In this document: piece by piece, positions 58,840 to 64,000 of the stretch
How the letters are laid out: each line of letters starts with the position of its first letter
How positions within the stretch are numbered: the stretch's first letter is position 1
Assembly: GCF_026537325.1 (NCBI RefSeq)
Contig: NZ_JAFNMJ010000002.1
Coordinates: 326,685-390,684, forward strand
Direction: 5' to 3'
Length of the DNA stretch: 64,000 bases
From: Bifidobacterium sp. B4142
Lineage (GTDB): Bacteria > Actinomycetota > Actinomycetes > Actinomycetales > Bifidobacteriaceae
Notes under the pieces: model-generated
Databases searched by the model: none
What the model was told of the DNA's origin: nothing
The model's input: the letters and a program-made list of their open reading frames with translations, nothing else
Translations under genes and position numbers: made by a program

Positions 58840-59925
58840 ATGCGCAAGGTTCTGTGCTCTCCCGGCTCCTATGTTCAGCAGGAGGGCGCCATGGGAAAGC
58901 TGGCTGGAGAATACGCGGCTCTGGGCACCAAGGGCGCCCATCTGATCGTCGACCCGGTCATCGACGGGCTCTACCACGACGACATTGTCGCCTCCTTTGA
59001 GCACGATGGGATCCCCTACGAACTGATGAAATTCGGCGGCGAGTGCTCCATGGAGGAAATCGACCGCCATCGTGCCCATTTGGGCGACAGCGACGCGGTG
59101 ATCGGCATTGGCGGCGGCAAGACCTTGGATACCGCCAAGGCTGTGGCCCACTTCGCCCACCTGCCGGTCATGATTGTGCCCACGGCAGCCTCCTCGGATG
59201 CGCCCTGCTCAAGGCTGTCCGTGCTCTACACGCCCGAGGGCGTCTTTGACCGTTACCTGCCCCTGCCTGCCAACCCCAACGTGGTCCTGATGGATACCGA
59301 CGTCATTGCCAAGGCTCCGGTGCGTTTCCTGGTGTCAGGACTGGGCGATGCCTTCGCCACCTATTACGAGGCAGCCGCCTGCGTGCAGTCGAACGCGGTG
59401 ACCATGACCGGGGGACACGCCACCATGGCTGCCTTCGCCCTGGCCCGTCTCTGCCGCGACACCCTGCTGGAGGATGGGGTCAAGGCCGTGGCCGCTGCCA
59501 AGGCCGGTGTCCGCACAGCCGCCTTGGAGAAGATCATCGAGGCCAATACGCTGCTGAGCGGTCTGGGCTTCGAGAGCTCCGGCCTGGCTGCAGCCCACGC
59601 CATCCATGATGGGATGACCGCCCTGGAGGGCACCCACTCCATGCTGCACGGCGAAAAGGTGGCCTTCGGCACCTTGGCCCAGCTGGTCCTTGAGGATTGG
59701 CCCCTGAAGGAGACCCGTGGGGTCTATGACTTCTTCCGCAGTGTGGGTCTGCCCACCTCCCTGGAGCAGATCGGCATCGGCCAGGCCAGCGAGGAGGATC
59801 TGCTCAAGGTTGGCGAACATGCCTGCGGTCCTGACGAGACCATGGGTAACATGCCCTTCGAGGTGACCCCCACCGATGTGGCTCACGCCCTGCGTGCAGC
59901 CGATCAGCTGGGCAAACAGTTCTGA
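58840..59925 (+). CDS. gldA: Glycerol dehydrogenase
   Basis: Zinc-dependent NAD+ oxidoreductase of 361 residues (family III alcohol dehydrogenases). Zinc ligands at Asp170, His253 and His270 have the same 83- and 17-residue spacing as in E. coli GldA. The NAD site shows IGIGGGKTLDTAK. ATG 58840 has AAAGG seven bases upstream. It oxidises glycerol to dihydroxyacetone, or runs the reverse way to re-oxidise NADH in fermentation. A bidirectional hairpin follows. Confidence 0.93.
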   Translation: MRKVLCSPGSYVQQEGAMGKLAGEYAALGTKGAHLIVDPVIDGLYHDDIVASFEHDGIPYELMKFGGECSMEEIDRHRAHLGDSDAVIGIGGGKTLDTAKAVAHFAHLPVMIVPTAASSDAPCSRLSVLYTPEGVFDRYLPLPANPNVVLMDTDVIAKAPVRFLVSGLGDAFATYYEAAACVQSNAVTMTGGHATMAAFALARLCRDTLLEDGVKAVAAAKAGVRTAALEKIIEANTLLSGLGFESSGLAAAHAIHDGMTALEGTHSMLHGEKVAFGTLAQLVLEDWPLKETRGVYDFFRSVGLPTSLEQIGIGQASEEDLLKVGEHACGPDETMGNMPFEVTPTDVAHALRAADQLGKQF

Positions 59926-60017: not shown

Positions 60018-60983
60018 TCATTGCAGGGAGCTGGCGGCCTTTCGTATGGCTTCTTCACTTGGGCATGTGGCTGGACCCCGCTGGGTAGTGGAAAGTGCTC
60101 CTGCACAGTTGGCCAGCACCAGGGCCTCCTCAATGGGCAGACCTTGGAAGATGCCCGCGCAGAGGACACCCGAGTGTGCATCGCCTGCACCGTTGGTGTC
60201 TATGGCATGGACCTGCGGGGTGGGAATGTACTGGCTCTGCATTGCATCCTTGGGCTGGCAGTACCAGGCACCGCGGGCGCCGGCTCTGAGAACCACCGGA
60301 CTGTCCAGTCTCAACGAAAGCGAGCGGCAGAGGGATTCCAACTCAGTAACGTCGCCAGTTTCGGGTTGGCACCCCAGACGTTTCGCCAGGATTGGTCCCT
60401 CGCGTTCGTTGAGGGACCAGATAGGATGCAGACCGTTGACCGCATCAAGAACATCCAATGCAATATCGGCCACCATGGGTCCCAGGTCGAAGAGCACCGG
60501 AAATCCTTCGCCCTGGTGTTTCTCAGCAAAACCGAGCAGGCTTCGGGTGTTGTCCTTGTGGCAGAAGGAATACCCACTCAGGTAGATGACATCACCGGGA
60601 ACCAGATTCATGCTTTCGTAGGTGCCCTCCGGTACCCGGGTCTCTGCGCCCCTCGCCGACACAAAGGTGCGTTCACCCGAGGGTTCGATCATGGCTACCG
60701 AGTATCCGGTGTCACAGTTATCCAGCACAGGCCCTTGTGCGGGAACCTGCAGGGCAGCAAGGGCTCCACGGGCCATGTCCGCCATCGGACCTGTGCCGAT
60801 CGCCCCCATGTAGGCTATGGGTGCCCCCATCCGCCTGGCTGCCTGGATCACGTTGTATCCGCCGCCGACCTTTATGGCGGTTCGCCTGGCGAAAATGTCC
60901 CCGCCGCGTTCCGGGAGGTGGTCGATGTTCATGCTCAGGTCAATCACCACCTGACCGAGATGAAGGATGCTGGGTTCAGTCAT
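60018..60983 (-). CDS. PfkB-family carbohydrate/nucleoside kinase, YegV-like
   Basis: Ribokinase-fold kinase, 321 residues. The N-terminal GGGYNVIQAARRMG motif and the C-terminal catalytic DTNGAGDAHSG (Asp base, anion hole) are intact. Several further stretches (EPSGERTF, YLSGYSF, SLNEREG, GARGAWY) resemble E. coli YegV. Start 60983 has GAGGAGC eight bases upstream and overlaps the permease end by eight bases. Last gene of the cluster with an NCS1 permease and an ADP-ribosylglycohydrolase. The substrate could be a ribosyl compound or nucleoside released inside. Confidence 0.87.
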   Translation of the reverse strand: MTEPSILHLGQVVIDLSMNIDHLPERGGDIFARRTAIKVGGGYNVIQAARRMGAPIAYMGAIGTGPMADMARGALAALQVPAQGPVLDNCDTGYSVAMIEPSGERTFVSARGAETRVPEGTYESMNLVPGDVIYLSGYSFCHKDNTRSLLGFAEKHQGEGFPVLFDLGPMVADIALDVLDAVNGLHPIWSLNEREGPILAKRLGCQPETGDVTELESLCRSLSLRLDSPVVLRAGARGAWYCQPKDAMQSQYIPTPQVHAIDTNGAGDAHSGVLCAGIFQGLPIEEALVLANCAGALSTTQRGPATCPSEEAIRKAASSLQ

Positions 60984-62442
60984 TACTGCTGCTCCTCACC
61001 GCCACGGAGTCCTTGGAGAGGAGGTGCAAAATGGCATAGAGGATTCCTCCCAGCAGGAGGGATACCAGCCATGCCAGGCCGTTCCTGCCCAGGAAGCTGC
61101 CGGCCAGCGGTCCTGAGAACCAGACCTCGTTCTTGGAGACCTGGGCCGTCACGAACAGGAAGCCGACGACTATCCCCACCAGCCAGCTGACGATGGCCGG
61201 GAGGTTGATGCCGTGCCAGTACCAGTATGGGGAATCGGCTTGAAGATTCAGAAGGCCGTCCGAATCGTAGCGCTTGCGGAAGATCATATCTGACAGGAAG
61301 ATGCCTGCCCAGGTGCTCAGCGGCACTGCCAAGAGGGAGATGAAGGTGACGAAGGGGCCGTAGAATCCGTCGGAGCCCAGCGTGAAGTACAGGGCTCCGC
61401 AGGTGGTCACCACCACATCGACGACGACCGCATAGACGCGGGGAATTCTGATGCCCAGGGTGATGGTGGTCAGGCCGGCCGAATATACGGACAGGTTGTT
61501 TGACATGAGCAACCCAGCGAAGGCGGCAATCAGATAGGGGATCGAAACCCAGGCGGGCAGGGCGCTTCGAACCGCGGCGACCGGATCAGCGGCGGAGGCA
61601 ATGGTGGAGTTGCCTGCTGTCAGGACCGATCCCAGGCCGATAACCACGACCAGGGGGATGCCGGCGCCGGCTGCTGCAGTCAGGATCAGAGAGCCGGATT
61701 TCACCGAGGTCTTTTGGTAGCGGGCCATGTCTGCGCCGGAATTGACCCAGCCGATGCCCGTCCCTGCGGCTATGGTGCCGACTCCGATCAGGAAGGCGCT
61801 GGCTGACCCGGGGGCATTGCCGATGAAGGAGGACCAGTCGACGGTCGTGGCCAGATAGATGGCTACCAAGAGGGTAAGGGCTCCGAATATCCAGGTGGCC
61901 CACTTCTGCACAGTGAGGATGAAGGCGTGGCCTGCGGCCGAGACCACCACGGTCAAGGCTACGAAGACGGCAATACAGACGAAGGTCAGGAAGGGGGAGC
62001 GCTTGGCATCAGCTGATGTGCCGAAGATGATGGCGATCAGGGAGAGCAGGGCAAAAGCGCCAGTCATCGTGTTCACCGTCTCCCAGCCCAGCCTGGATAG
62101 CAGAGCCACCAGTGTGGGGCCCGCATTGCCTCTGACGCCGAAAATGGCTCGGGACAGGGTCAGCGTGGGGGCGCCGCCTCTTTTGCCGGCTATGGAAATG
62201 ATGCCGACCAGTGCGAAGGATCCGAAGGCTCCGATGGTCGTGGCGAGCACGGCCTGCCAGAGGTTGAGGCCCTGGGCAATCAGGGTAGCTCCCAGAGGGA
62301 TTCCCAGGATCGAGATGTTGGCGGCGAACCAGACCCAGAAGAGCTGACCGGGCGACCCGTTCCTCTGATCCTCGGGCACGGGTTCGATGCCCCTTTGCTC
62401 AACTCTGGAGAGGATGGTGCCCTCTTTTGGTGCAGTTGACAT
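60976..62442 (-). CDS. NCS1-family nucleobase/nucleoside permease
   Basis: Membrane transporter of 488 residues with about 12 hydrophobic helices. Landmarks include GSPGQLFWVWFAANISILGIPLG near the first helix and SRAIFGVRGN, typical of purine-cytosine permeases. H+ or Na+ symport of a nucleobase or nucleoside is inferred. Start ATG 62442 has AAAGGAG eight bases upstream. A 153-base gap separates it from the ARH gene and holds a partly symmetric ATTCCTGAAGGATT (62561-62574) site. Confidence 0.86.
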   Translation of the reverse strand: MSTAPKEGTILSRVEQRGIEPVPEDQRNGSPGQLFWVWFAANISILGIPLGATLIAQGLNLWQAVLATTIGAFGSFALVGIISIAGKRGGAPTLTLSRAIFGVRGNAGPTLVALLSRLGWETVNTMTGAFALLSLIAIIFGTSADAKRSPFLTFVCIAVFVALTVVVSAAGHAFILTVQKWATWIFGALTLLVAIYLATTVDWSSFIGNAPGSASAFLIGVGTIAAGTGIGWVNSGADMARYQKTSVKSGSLILTAAAGAGIPLVVVIGLGSVLTAGNSTIASAADPVAAVRSALPAWVSIPYLIAAFAGLLMSNNLSVYSAGLTTITLGIRIPRVYAVVVDVVVTTCGALYFTLGSDGFYGPFVTFISLLAVPLSTWAGIFLSDMIFRKRYDSDGLLNLQADSPYWYWHGINLPAIVSWLVGIVVGFLFVTAQVSKNEVWFSGPLAGSFLGRNGLAWLVSLLLGGILYAILHLLSKDSVAVRSSSND

Positions 62443-62595
62443 GGATTGTCTCCTTTGACTCACGATGTACTGGATGCAGCGATGGATTGTCTGGTCAGGC
62501 CTGTGGTGTGGTCTGGGTGGACCCCATGATCTCAGGGTTGACTGGATTTTATATTCTTGTATTCCTGAAGGATTCTGTCGTATCCGTTTTGCGCT

Positions 62596-63591
62596 TTACC
62601 TTAGGGTAATCAGGCCACGGGCAGTTTTCTGCAGGTCAAGGTGAGATACCGAAGCCACCTGGGAGCAGAGTGCAGGGTCGAACACCTCGGGGCCGGTGCA
62701 TGCGCCGGTCATTGCGCCAGTCATGGCAGCGATGGTGTCCGTATCGCCGCCCAGGTTGACCGCGACGAATAGAGCCGATTGGGGATCGTCGGCGAATCTC
62801 CAGGCCAGGGCAAAAGCGGCTGCCACAGACTCATTGGCCTCCACCGAAGTGCCGCAGTCTTCGATGAGGTGGCGTTCGAAGTCGTCCTCATCGCTGAATT
62901 CTTCGGACACTTGTATTGCCTGGCGGGCCCGAGCGGGAACCGATGCCTTGGGTGTCCAGGCTCCGGCGGTTTCCATGGCGGGTACCAGGCGCAAGGACTC
63001 ATTCAGTGCCTGGCGAACGGTCATTCCTTCAAGTCCCAGACTGACTGTCGTAGCGATCAGCGCTGCGCTTTGAAAGCCTGCGACCGTGTCGTGGGTGACC
63101 TGGCAGGACTCGTAGATGCGATTGGCCAGCCGTCTGGTGTCTTCGGGCCTGTTGGCTATCCCTACCGGGGCGACTCGCATGGCCGCCCCATTGGTGGTGC
63201 CGGTCCTTCCTGTTGCCATGATGTCCGCGCCATGGCGAACCTGTTCCAGGGCCAGCTTGGTGGATGGCCCGAGCAGGTCCAGTGATCCGCGTGACTTCAT
63301 GCCGTCCTCCCAGGCCAGAAGGCGCTTAGCGAACTCTTTGGGATCGATGTGTCCTCTGCCCTCGATGATCAGCTCTGCGACAATCAGTGCCTGCTCGGTG
63401 TCATCGGTCACAGATCCCGCAGGCATACCTGGAGCGATCGGCTGATCCGCAATAGCATCACGAAGGGTGTCAACCCTGCCGTAGGCCTCATGGATGGCTG
63501 CTGGACTCATGCTCTGCGTGGGCATGCCCAGCGCATCTCCCAAGGACAGCCCAGTAAGTGCGCCCAGTGCGCCCTTTTCAGTTCTGGTCAT
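62596..63591 (-). CDS. ADP-ribosylglycohydrolase-family protein, YegU-like
   Basis: ARH/DraG-fold hydrolase of 331 residues. Metal-binding stretches: SVTDDTEQAL (Thr-Asp-Asp) and NLGGDTDTIAAMTG (Gly-Asp-Thr-Asp), both intact, so Mg2+-dependent cleavage of an N-ribosyl bond is likely. ATG 63591 has GGAGG about 11 bases upstream; the frame is open another 22 codons. First gene of the cluster. In this context the substrate is probably a small ribosyl compound and not an ADP-ribosylated protein. Confidence 0.88.
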   Translation of the reverse strand: MTRTEKGALGALTGLSLGDALGMPTQSMSPAAIHEAYGRVDTLRDAIADQPIAPGMPAGSVTDDTEQALIVAELIIEGRGHIDPKEFAKRLLAWEDGMKSRGSLDLLGPSTKLALEQVRHGADIMATGRTGTTNGAAMRVAPVGIANRPEDTRRLANRIYESCQVTHDTVAGFQSAALIATTVSLGLEGMTVRQALNESLRLVPAMETAGAWTPKASVPARARQAIQVSEEFSDEDDFERHLIEDCGTSVEANESVAAAFALAWRFADDPQSALFVAVNLGGDTDTIAAMTGAMTGACTGPEVFDPALCSQVASVSHLDLQKTARGLITLR

Positions 63592-63631
63592 TGTTGTGCA
63601 AGCCTCCAGAGTCGTTGCGATGAGCCCATGA

Positions 63632-63645
63632 ATCTGTTTGCAGAT
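63632..63645. promoter_or_regulatory. Dyad upstream of the ARH-permease-kinase cluster
   Basis: ATCTG-N4-CAGAT (63632-63645) is a perfect dyad 40 bases upstream of the ARH start. It could be the operator of an absent regulator. Confidence 0.4.
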
Positions 63646-63657
63646 AGACTGCGACAT

Positions 63658-64000
63658 TTTTAATCAGAATAATTGTAAGGCCCTTGGAGGTTTGTCGGCA
63701 CAAAGGTTGTGGCAAGCATGATTCACAATGAAGAATGGGAGTCTGAGCGAGCTCTATCCTGTTAGGTGGGAGATAAAAACAATGCTGGTTAGTCGAGGTT
63801 AAAGATTTGATCGAGGTGTGGGTTCTATAGATTGCCGACAGTGATTGGCGAAGATTATCCCTTGATGCCGTAACGGAGTTTGTCGGGGTGTCCTAATCTT
63901 GGCTTCGGCATGGGTGGGCTATAGGAACTAAACGCGTTGTTTATGTTGGGGGTTTGGCCTTGTGGCTGTAAGCGTGTTGGGTGGTTGTTAATAGGTCGGG
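63658..64000. other. AT-richer window end without recognised gene
   Basis: The last 343 bases have lower GC than the rest. I found no RNA gene or credible complete ORF. On the minus strand a frame is open from the window edge (about 63998) to a TAA at 63855-63857, about 47 codons, possibly the end of a gene to the right. It has no motif I know. Confidence 0.4.

What the first reader, a model, noticed from the sequence alone, without database searches (positions are those of the whole stretch)
60018..63591. ARH hydrolase, NCS1 permease and YegV-like kinase form a catabolic cluster of unknown substrate
Three genes run in one direction: an ADP-ribosylglycohydrolase-fold enzyme with intact metal motifs (TDDTE, GGDTDT), an NCS1 permease and a PfkB kinase with DTNGAGDAH. 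The last two overlap by eight bases. The same trio of families recurs in E. coli yegTUV and Salmonella STM4065-4067, where STM4066 was shown to phosphorylate aminoimidazole riboside. A permease, an N-glycosidase-type enzyme and a sugar/nucleoside kinase together suggest uptake of a nucleoside-like compound and then either cleavage or phosphorylation. The natural substrate is not known to me; this is inference from family and order.
Basis: partly seen in the sequence, partly recalled or inferred. Interest (0 to 1): 0.75.

Follow-up and report, generated by a model that had tools for sequence, protein, structure and literature searches.

The report
Likely vitamin B3-nucleoside salvage operon
Three neighbouring genes in a bee-gut Bifidobacterium belong to a widespread importer, kinase and hydrolase set that probably takes up a nucleoside and splits it, and its position beside vitamin B3 (nicotinate) degradation genes in several other bacteria suggests the nucleoside carries that vitamin.

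Summary
In detail: an ARH-fold hydrolase, an NCS1 permease and a PfkB kinase run in one direction; the last two overlap by 8 bp. ARH plus PfkB is a real unit: the kinase is beside the ARH in 80 of 80 chosen relatives and in 26 of 26 module ARHs from 398 Pseudomonadota, against 5 of 59 ARH-bearing Actinomycetota genomes overall (kinase list cut). The importer is swapped (NCS1, YegT type, PotD-like ABC; also BMP-ABC, PTS). Module ARHs carry T-N-G for the usual G-N-G; the window clade has Gln for the flap Glu. New: a complete nicotinate-degradation (nic) cluster flanks the module in Pantoea, Halomonas, Paraburkholderia silvatlantica and Burkholderia stagnalis; six Bifidobacteriaceae loci add a nicotinamidase-superfamily gene. 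The window genome lacks NadA but has nicotinate phosphoribosyltransferase. Best reading: NCS1 imports a pyridine riboside, PfkB phosphorylates it, ARH cleaves it to base plus ribose 5-phosphate. Substrate and order are inferred; no activity was tested. nic adjacency is a minority state (2 of 20 NicX-bearing genomes in a panel of 50). E. coli's permease is not NCS1, so 'same trio' is only partly right.

The parts
62596..63591 (-). ARH-fold hydrolase gene (331 aa from ATG 63591; longest ORF from 63657). Metal motifs T62-D63-D64-T65 and D283-T-D285-T286; T133-N134-G135 signature; Gln26 at the ARH3 Glu41 column
   Evidence: PF03747 213.8 bits; alignment A2; PDB alignments; motif tally; sequence
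60976..62442 (-). NCS1 permease gene (probable ATG start 62442; longest ORF from GTG 62463)
   Evidence: PF02133 213.8 bits; only Mhp1 hydantoin permease among PDB sequences at E 0.001; Shine-Dalgarno
60018..60983 (-). PfkB kinase gene, YegV-related, DTNGAGDAH motif
   Evidence: PF00294 113.8 bits; 85.4 bits against the ribokinase model with cut-off 299.65; tree
60976..60983 (-). 8-bp overlap of permease stop and kinase start
   Evidence: sequence
62443..62595 (-). 153-bp gap between ARH and permease; could hold a second promoter (not tested)
   Evidence: sequence
63592..64000 (-). upstream region to the contig end; too short to show whether a GntR gene stood here, as in 51 of 80 relatives
   Evidence: IS1249-type transposase at this place in G001

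Best explanation
The three genes are one version of a mobile salvage/catabolic module for an N-riboside. The NCS1 permease imports the riboside, the PfkB kinase phosphorylates it (probably at the ribose 5-OH), and the ARH-fold enzyme hydrolyses the N-glycosidic bond of the phosphoriboside with two metal ions, giving the free base and ribose 5-phosphate. The base is most likely a pyridine: nicotinamide or nicotinate, so the substrate is nicotinamide riboside or nicotinic acid riboside and the intermediate NMN or NaMN. In bacteria with the nic pathway the freed nicotinate would be burned; in the NadA-less window organism it would feed nicotinate phosphoribosyltransferase and NAD. Shown: the genes, their linkage, purifying selection, importer swapping, nic adjacency in four lineages, no NadA match. 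Inferred: substrate, order of steps, products. About 0.75 for 'N-riboside/nucleoside-like substrate', 0.6 for kinase first, 0.5 for the pyridine identity. Which anomer (alpha or beta) is open.
For: Linkage: PfkB beside the ARH in 80 of 80 window-ARH relatives (58 ARH-NCS1-PfkB, 7 ARH-PfkB-NCS1, 15 ARH-PfkB) and in 26 of 26 module ARHs of 398 Pseudomonadota, 1.7 kb apart or less; over all ARH families, 5 of 59 Actinomycetota genomes. ARH and kinase distances correlate, r=0.92 over 21 loci. Nucleoside-like: YegT nucleoside symporter; BMP/PnrA ABC next to a T-N-G ARH in L173; divergent nucleoside-hydrolase operon beside the trio in L004 and L010. Kinase first: in Enterococcus and Listeria the T-N-G ARH follows a PTS IIABC and no PfkB was found in the ~14.8 kb read, so a phosphorylating importer stands in for permease plus kinase; the module kinase is no ribokinase by model score. 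Pyridine: complete nic cluster beside the module in Pantoea At-9b and P. dispersa (9 of 9 Pantoea plasmid records with NicX have the ARH within 8 kb), Halomonas salipaludis, Paraburkholderia silvatlantica and B. stagnalis, with three importer types; NicX/NicE are 90/95% identical between the last two but ARH 48%, kinase 43%. In 50 module genomes (23 NicX copies) 2 lie within 20 kb against 0.12 expected. Isochorismatase/nicotinamidase-superfamily gene directly behind ARH-PfkB-NCS1 in 6 of 7 loci of that order (the 7th contig ends there), and in the Halomonas ABC operon. Window genome: no NadA, nicotinate phosphoribosyltransferase present. A cationic pyridinium leaving group would suit an ARH with Gln instead of Glu (inference).
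Against: No activity is shown. nic adjacency is a minority: no NicX, C, D or E match beside the module in the 26 Pseudomonadota sample loci, 18 of 20 NicX-bearing genomes of the panel have NicX elsewhere (16 on other contigs, 2 on the same contig 168 kb and 2 Mb away), 6 of 15 Pantoea plasmids with the ARH have no NicX match. I noticed the link after reading many flanks, so the probability is post hoc. The isochorismatase-family genes are not nicotinamidases by model (20.9 and 25 of 174 bits). No match to E. coli PncA or PncB at E 1e-5 in any stretch fetched by then. ARH enzymes known so far cut alpha linkages, while natural NR is beta (recalled). The flap Glu is missing in the window clade. 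E. coli's regulator of yegTUV was released by ADP-glucose in vitro (PMC10819704, section 21). Two YegV-like kinases have no PF03747 match in the genome (G052, G118); four of 7 Actinomycetota module-ARH genomes have no kinase found nearby. Halomonas and Mesorhizobium-like versions carry further genes (GH63-like hydrolase; cis-3-hydroxyproline dehydratase type) that this reading does not explain. The nic cluster has not been seen beside the trio in Bifidobacterium.
Confidence: 0.5

Rival explanations
1. Hydrolase first: the permease imports the nucleoside, the ARH splits it to base and ribose, and the PfkB kinase phosphorylates free ribose.
For: Kinase profile is nearest to ribokinases in the PDB. 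In L117 an ARH stands with a TRAP transporter, a ribokinase-like kinase (276 bits) and RpiB. L173 has a nucleoside-type ABC and no kinase found.
Against: Window and YegV kinases score 85.4 and 83.4 bits against the ribokinase model (cut-off 299.65) and the window kinase lacks GGKGANQ. PTS versions have no kinase found. The L117 ARH is very distant (branch 7-10 changes per column).
Confidence: 0.2
2. Same logic, other aglycone: an imidazole or purine-like riboside (AIRs-like), or a plant N-glucoside such as nicotinate N-glucoside, especially in the PTS versions.
For: STM4066 phosphorylates AIRs (PMC3161100, passages). PTS of the beta-glucoside family; GH63-like hydrolase in the Halomonas version; adenosine deaminase family next to a distant ARH in L175/L176.
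Against: Does not account for nic clusters beside different module versions in four lineages. The window genome already has 7 matches to a nucleoside hydrolase, so common nucleosides may be served.
Confidence: 0.2
3. Module handles ADP-glucose or glycogen metabolism, as proposed for E. coli yegTUV/GgaR.
For: ADP-glucose, not ADP or glucose, released GgaR from its operator (PMC10819704, section 21 read); yegV is on a list of genes whose deletion lowers glycogen (passages).
Against: The module occurs on small Lactobacillus plasmids and beside nic clusters, with nucleoside, PotD-like and PTS importers; none of this fits glycogen. The section I read names only ADP-glucose, ADP and glucose as effectors tried in vitro.
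Confidence: 0.05
4. The ARH is a protein de-ADP-ribosylase that only happens to sit with the other two genes.
For: Family membership.
Against: 80 of 80 linkage; DraG and Tri1 models far below cut-off (76.8 of 337.05; 75.6 of 490); flap Glu replaced; aligned ARH3 Phe143/Tyr149 positions (numbering recalled) are not aromatic.
Confidence: 0.03

Closest known systems
E. coli yegTUV-yegW (GgaR)
   Same: ARH (YegU, 30% id) + PfkB (YegV, 30% id) + permease + GntR-type regulator
   Different: permease is an MFS nucleoside symporter; regulator present; YegU has Glu at the flap position where the window has Gln
Salmonella STM4065-4067 (AIRs kinase operon; recalled plus PMC3161100 passages)
   Same: operon of ARH (STM4067) and kinase STM4066 that phosphorylates an N-riboside
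   Different: 1tyy (STM4066 by recall) is a more distant PfkB (104.5 bits, rank 17); sequence of the operon not fetched
Pseudouridine pathway psuT-psuG-psuK
   Same: logic: importer, PfkB kinase, then cleavage of the phosphorylated nucleoside (genes seen; chemistry recalled)
   Different: PsuG is unrelated to ARH (recalled); PsuK is only 26 bits to the window kinase
Fructoselysine pathway frlA, frlB, frlD, frlR
   Same: transporter + kinase (FrlD) + deglycase acting on the phosphorylated compound + regulator (gene names); PTS-based variants exist (recalled)
   Different: different substrate and deglycase fold
Listeria PTS-ARH operon (likely bvrABC; name recalled)
   Same: T-N-G type ARH
   Different: PTS IIABC plus PRD antiterminator, no kinase found; Glu at the flap position

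Membership tests
ADP-ribosylglycohydrolase fold (PF03747) | profile match over gathering score | tested here: met
   213.8 bits, cut-off 26.2
ADP-ribosylglycohydrolase fold (PF03747) | two-metal motifs TDDT and DTDT | tested here: met
   invariant in 21 and 31 aligned ARHs
ADP-ribosyl hydrolase by function (DraG/ARH1/ARH3) | flap Glu (ARH3 Glu41, number recalled) | tested here: not met
   Gln in 79 of 79 readable window-type ARHs (77 by pattern, 2 by eye, 1 of 80 unreadable); Glu in 20 of 20 control loci, and in 4 of 7 further copies, 3 unreadable
ADP-ribosyl hydrolase by function (DraG/ARH1/ARH3) | G before the N/C of the NG-xx-MR motif | tested here: not met
   T in 80 of 80 window-type; G in all 11 other ARH copies where the motif could be read, of 27
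ADP-ribosyl hydrolase by function (DraG/ARH1/ARH3) | NCBIfam DraG or Tri1 equivalog | tested here: not met
   76.8 of 337.05 and 75.6 of 490 bits
ADP-ribosyl hydrolase by function (DraG/ARH1/ARH3) | hydrolysis of ADP-ribosyl substrates | not testable with these tools
   needs assay
Ribokinase RbsK | TIGR02152 equivalog score | tested here: not met
   85.4 bits, cut-off 299.65
NCS1 transporter family | PF02133 match | tested here: met
   213.8 bits, cut-off 23.5; below the cut-off of the NCBIfam subfamily model ncs1 (110.3 of 353.1)
yegTUV-type module | ARH and PfkB genes side by side on one strand, or one transporter apart | tested here: met
   window, and 80 of 80 relatives
yegTUV-type module | GntR/UTRA regulator beside the operon | tested here: inconclusive
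   found in 51 of 80; window ends 409 bp upstream; IS1249-type transposase there in G001
Pyridine-riboside catabolic module | gene link to nicotinate metabolism | tested here: inconclusive
   nic cluster adjacent in four other lineages, not in Bifidobacterium; window genome without NadA match
Pyridine-riboside catabolic module | nicotinamidase in the operon | tested here: inconclusive
   nicotinamidase-superfamily gene (PF00857) in 6 of 7 ARH-PfkB-NCS1 loci, but the nicotinamidase model is not reached (20.9 and 25 of 174 bits); none in the window operon
Pyridine-riboside catabolic module | activity on NR, NaR, NMN or NaMN | not testable with these tools
   needs assay

The most novel reading that the evidence does not exclude
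The ARH-PfkB module, including E. coli yegUV, is a general bacterial route for nicotinamide/nicotinic acid riboside: a PfkB-type NR/NaR kinase and an ARH-fold NMN/NaMN hydrolase, in the window clade with a Gln-flap site that relies on the cationic pyridinium as leaving group. It would give a gene to NMN nucleosidase activity (EC 3.2.2.14; number and its orphan status recalled) and let NAD-auxotrophic gut bacteria and nicotinate degraders feed on broken-down NAD.
Probability: 0.4. Interest if true: 0.85.

Novelty: new variant of a known kind. Interest (0 to 1): 0.7.

Why it matters
yegTUV has had no settled function in E. coli (PMC10819704, passages), and YegU is named after ADP-ribosylation. 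If the module handles pyridine ribosides, a large group of 'ADP-ribosylglycohydrolases' is misnamed, PfkB kinases gain a new substrate class, and a link between environmental NAD breakdown products and bacterial nicotinate use becomes directly testable. It also gives bee-gut bifidobacteria without NadA a plausible vitamin B3 source.

Tried and rejected
Literature: the 10 searches showed, in the rows and abstract starts listed (one search listed 25 of 146), no paper that assigns a substrate to the module apart from the two I read in part (PMC10819704, PMC3161100; of PMC2784778 I saw one passage). One search (ADP-ribosylglycohydrolase with nicotinamide riboside) gave one paper, not read. Dougherty and Downs 2003 is not held. 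The glycerol dehydrogenase gene beside the kinase was rejected as a part: among L003-L082 it is found only in L003-L012. thiM/thiD stand beside yegW in L083, L088 and L134 (in L134 by resemblance of the printed starts); I did not search for them elsewhere. L046/G863: its nic cluster is on another contig and was not counted. L186/L202: a NicA-like match belongs to another molybdenum hydroxylase set and was not counted. L092 has a NicT-like gene only; not counted. The kinase tree does not by itself prove one clade of window-type and YegV-type kinases: under midpoint rooting the E. coli RbsK group falls between them.

Weak points: the 80 loci were chosen by similarity to the window ARH (best 80 of 257). 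The 20 control ARH loci (none with PfkB) were picked by me after the four genomes with a nearby kinase (G087, G169, G100, G138) had been set apart, so '0 of 20' is not an independent rate; the fair background is 5 of 59 genomes, window included, with a kinase list that was cut. The distance correlation is not corrected for shared ancestry. NadA/module association inside the genus (10 of 11 module genomes lack NadA, 3 of 7 others; Fisher p=0.047) is confounded by clade. The NicX search in plasmids listed 60 of 202 records, so other records with both genes may exist, and the second NicX place of Caballeronia SBC1/SBC2 was not seen. Draft contigs can hide adjacency.


Full report
What is there. 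The window lies in a Bifidobacterium of the B. asteroides clade (L003 B. mizhiense, ARH 99% identical; genome of 2.22 Mb). Three minus-strand genes, ARH (62596-63591), NCS1 permease (60976-62442) and PfkB kinase (60018-60983), are confirmed by ORF and Pfam searches. The 8-bp overlap of the last two is exact. Between ARH and permease lie 153 bp, so a second promoter is possible. The contig ends 409 bp above the ARH start; in the nearly identical complete genome G001 an IS1249-type transposase gene stands there, which would explain the assembly break. dN/dS of the three genes against L006, L010 and L012 is 0.03-0.14, against the very close L004 0.06-0.24, so all three are under selection. In G008 the operon has decayed to an ARH remnant running into a kinase remnant, without the permease.

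The pair is real, the importer is exchangeable. Of the 80 best ARH relatives in the genome collection (of 257 found), 58 have ARH-NCS1-PfkB, 7 ARH-PfkB-NCS1 and 15 ARH-PfkB; a GntR gene was found upstream in 51. In a sample of 398 Pseudomonadota, 26 genomes have a module ARH and all 26 have the PfkB gene on the same strand at most 1.7 kb away; the importer is NCS1 in 7, the YegT nucleoside symporter in 10 and a PotD-like ABC in 9, and a GntR gene is near in all 26. In 396 Actinomycetota 7 genomes match: three with a kinase (window, L172, L177) and four without one found (L173, L175, L176, and L174, where ARH and permease look decayed). Over all PF03747 genes, 59 of 119 sampled Actinomycetota genomes have one and 5 of these 59 (window included) show a module-type kinase hit (E 1e-20) within 2 kb (the kinase list was cut). 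Twenty further ARH loci that I picked from that list have no PfkB within about 3 kb, but they were picked after the kinase-bearing ones had been set apart. ARH and kinase trees show the same main groups and their distances correlate (r=0.92, 21 loci, 0 of 2000 permutations; not corrected for descent). Trio plasmids in Lactiplantibacillus, Limosilactobacillus and Plesiomonas show that it travels.

ARH subfamily signature. The metal ligands are intact, but two positions set the module apart. In the NG-xx-MR motif the residue before N is Thr in 80 of 80 window-type ARHs and in all 25 other module copies read (YegU, NCS1, ABC and PTS versions); in the other ARHs it is Gly wherever it could be read (11 of 27 copies). 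At the column of ARH3 Glu41 (number recalled) window-type ARHs have Gln in 79 of 79 readable sequences, the YegU and PTS versions have Glu, and the 20 control loci have Glu in 20 of 20. The alignment to ARH3 and DraG around this residue has no gap. The DraG and Tri1 equivalog models score far below cut-off. So this is an ARH-fold enzyme that should not be filed as an ADP-ribosyl hydrolase.

Kinase. It scores 85 bits against the ribokinase model (cut-off 299.65) and lacks the GGKGANQ motif; the module kinases share D91-x-G93, ERTF, GxE and GAGD-x-H. By BLAST it is closer to every YegV-like kinase compared (99 bits or more, the orphans L113 and L114 included) than to RbsK (46 bits) or the ribokinase-like kinase of L117 (31 bits).

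Order of steps. In Enterococcus raffinosus and Listeria the T-N-G ARH sits behind a beta-glucoside-family PTS IIABC and a PRD antiterminator, and no PfkB gene was detected in the fetched 14.8-15 kb. A PTS imports and phosphorylates in one act, so it replaces permease plus kinase; this favours phosphorylation before ARH cleavage. The same exchange is known for fructoselysine-type pathways (recalled), where a PfkB kinase precedes a deglycase. Against a strict rule, L173 joins a T-N-G ARH to a PnrA/BMP nucleoside ABC with no kinase found, and L117 joins a very distant ARH to a TRAP transporter, a ribokinase-like kinase and RpiB, which points to ribose as the sugar but fits either order.

Aglycone. 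The complete nicotinate-degradation cluster (nic letters assigned by me from pathway order and the RefSeq name 2,5-dihydroxypyridine 5,6-dioxygenase; letters recalled) lies beside the module in four lineages. Pantoea At-9b and P. dispersa: nicB,A,R,X,C,D,E,F,T then YegT-ARH-PfkB-GntR; all 9 Pantoea plasmid records with a NicX match have the ARH within 8 kb, 9 of the 15 Pantoea records with the ARH have NicX, and the three further Pantoea plasmids that I opened lack nic at that site. Halomonas salipaludis: nic genes on one side of GntR-ARH-PfkB, PotD-like ABC plus an isochorismatase-family gene on the other. Paraburkholderia silvatlantica: nic genes, a porin, then ARH-NCS1-PfkB. Burkholderia stagnalis: the same nic genes, then an ABC-type module with GntR and a related porin. 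The last two are telling: NicX and NicE are 90% and 95% identical, but ARH is 48%, kinase 43%, and the importers differ, so different module versions stand beside the same nic cluster. In 50 module genomes that I searched for NicX, 20 have it (23 copies) and 2 copies lie within 20 kb of the ARH, 0.12 expected by length alone, P=0.007; in the other 18 genomes it is on another contig (16) or on the same contig 168 kb or 2 Mb away. Among the 60 of 202 plasmid records listed with NicX, Caballeronia SBC1/SBC2 and three Paraburkholderia records have the listed copy about 180-207 kb from the ARH. The statistic is post hoc.

In the seven ARH-PfkB-NCS1 loci (B. indicum, Gardnerella, B. phasiani, B. pullorum) an isochorismatase/nicotinamidase-superfamily gene (PF00857, 96 and 116 bits in the two scanned) stands directly behind the permease in six; the contig of the seventh (L022) ends there. 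Relatives stand behind a second NCS1 gene in Amycolatopsis L060 and in the Halomonas ABC operon, and L172 has one beside its NCS1 gene. Nicotinamidases are among the weak PDB matches (1ilw, E 1e-5), but the nicotinamidase model is not reached, so this is suggestive only.

The window organism. NadA is not found in 13 of 18 sampled genomes of its genus, G000 included, while a nicotinate phosphoribosyltransferase is found in all 18. Such an organism needs niacin or a pyridine riboside from outside. It also has 7 matches to a nucleoside hydrolase, so common nucleosides are likely served already. In L004 and L010 the trio is divergent from an operon of an MHS-type MFS permease, a RbsR/PurR-like LacI regulator and an inosine-uridine nucleoside hydrolase (the L010 copies by resemblance of the printed starts).

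Known literature seen. PMC10819704 (passages and section 21): GgaR/YegW represses yegTUV, ADP-glucose but not ADP or glucose releases it. PMC3161100 (passages): STM4065-4066-4067 form an operon and STM4066 has AIRs kinase activity, citing Dougherty and Downs 2003. An enzyme that accepts a small aromatic N-riboside fits a pyridine riboside by size.

Verdict. The module and its linkage are solid. A nucleoside-like N-riboside is likely (0.75), phosphorylation first is favoured (0.6), and the pyridine identity is a specific, testable proposal (0.5) that rests on gene neighbourhood and missing NadA, not on activity.

Noticed in passing
window 58840-59925 (+): glycerol dehydrogenase-like gene convergent with the kinase; among L003-L082 found beside the trio in L003-L012 only
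   Followed up: partly
L144 6806-7793: decayed copy of the operon in G008: ARH remnant running into kinase remnant, permease gone
   Followed up: partly
L115 and L139: Streptomyces-like clusters of four PF03747 genes plus one PfkB; function unknown
   Followed up: partly
L129, L132, L138, L180: Mesorhizobium-like ABC versions of the module are followed by a split cis-3-hydroxyproline dehydratase-like pair
   Followed up: partly
L042 510-2702 and L184 13337-15235: GH63/MGH1-like glycoside hydrolase gene (66% identical) at the end of the PotD-like ABC operon in two module loci
   Followed up: partly
L175 8118-9116 and L176 7084-8082: adenosine deaminase family gene directly behind a distant ARH in which the T-N-G pattern was not found
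   Followed up: partly
L114 8331-11953: YegV-like kinase beside an amino-acid permease and an acetamidase/formamidase in a genome without PF03747 match
   Followed up: no
L108 and L111: ARH-NCS1-PfkB trio on small Lactobacillus plasmids; transposase, recombinase or integrase genes within about 3 kb
   Followed up: no
L065 6032-7057, L205 18441-19544, L092 4988-6013: related porin genes (63-89% identical) near the module in three Burkholderiaceae loci
   Followed up: no
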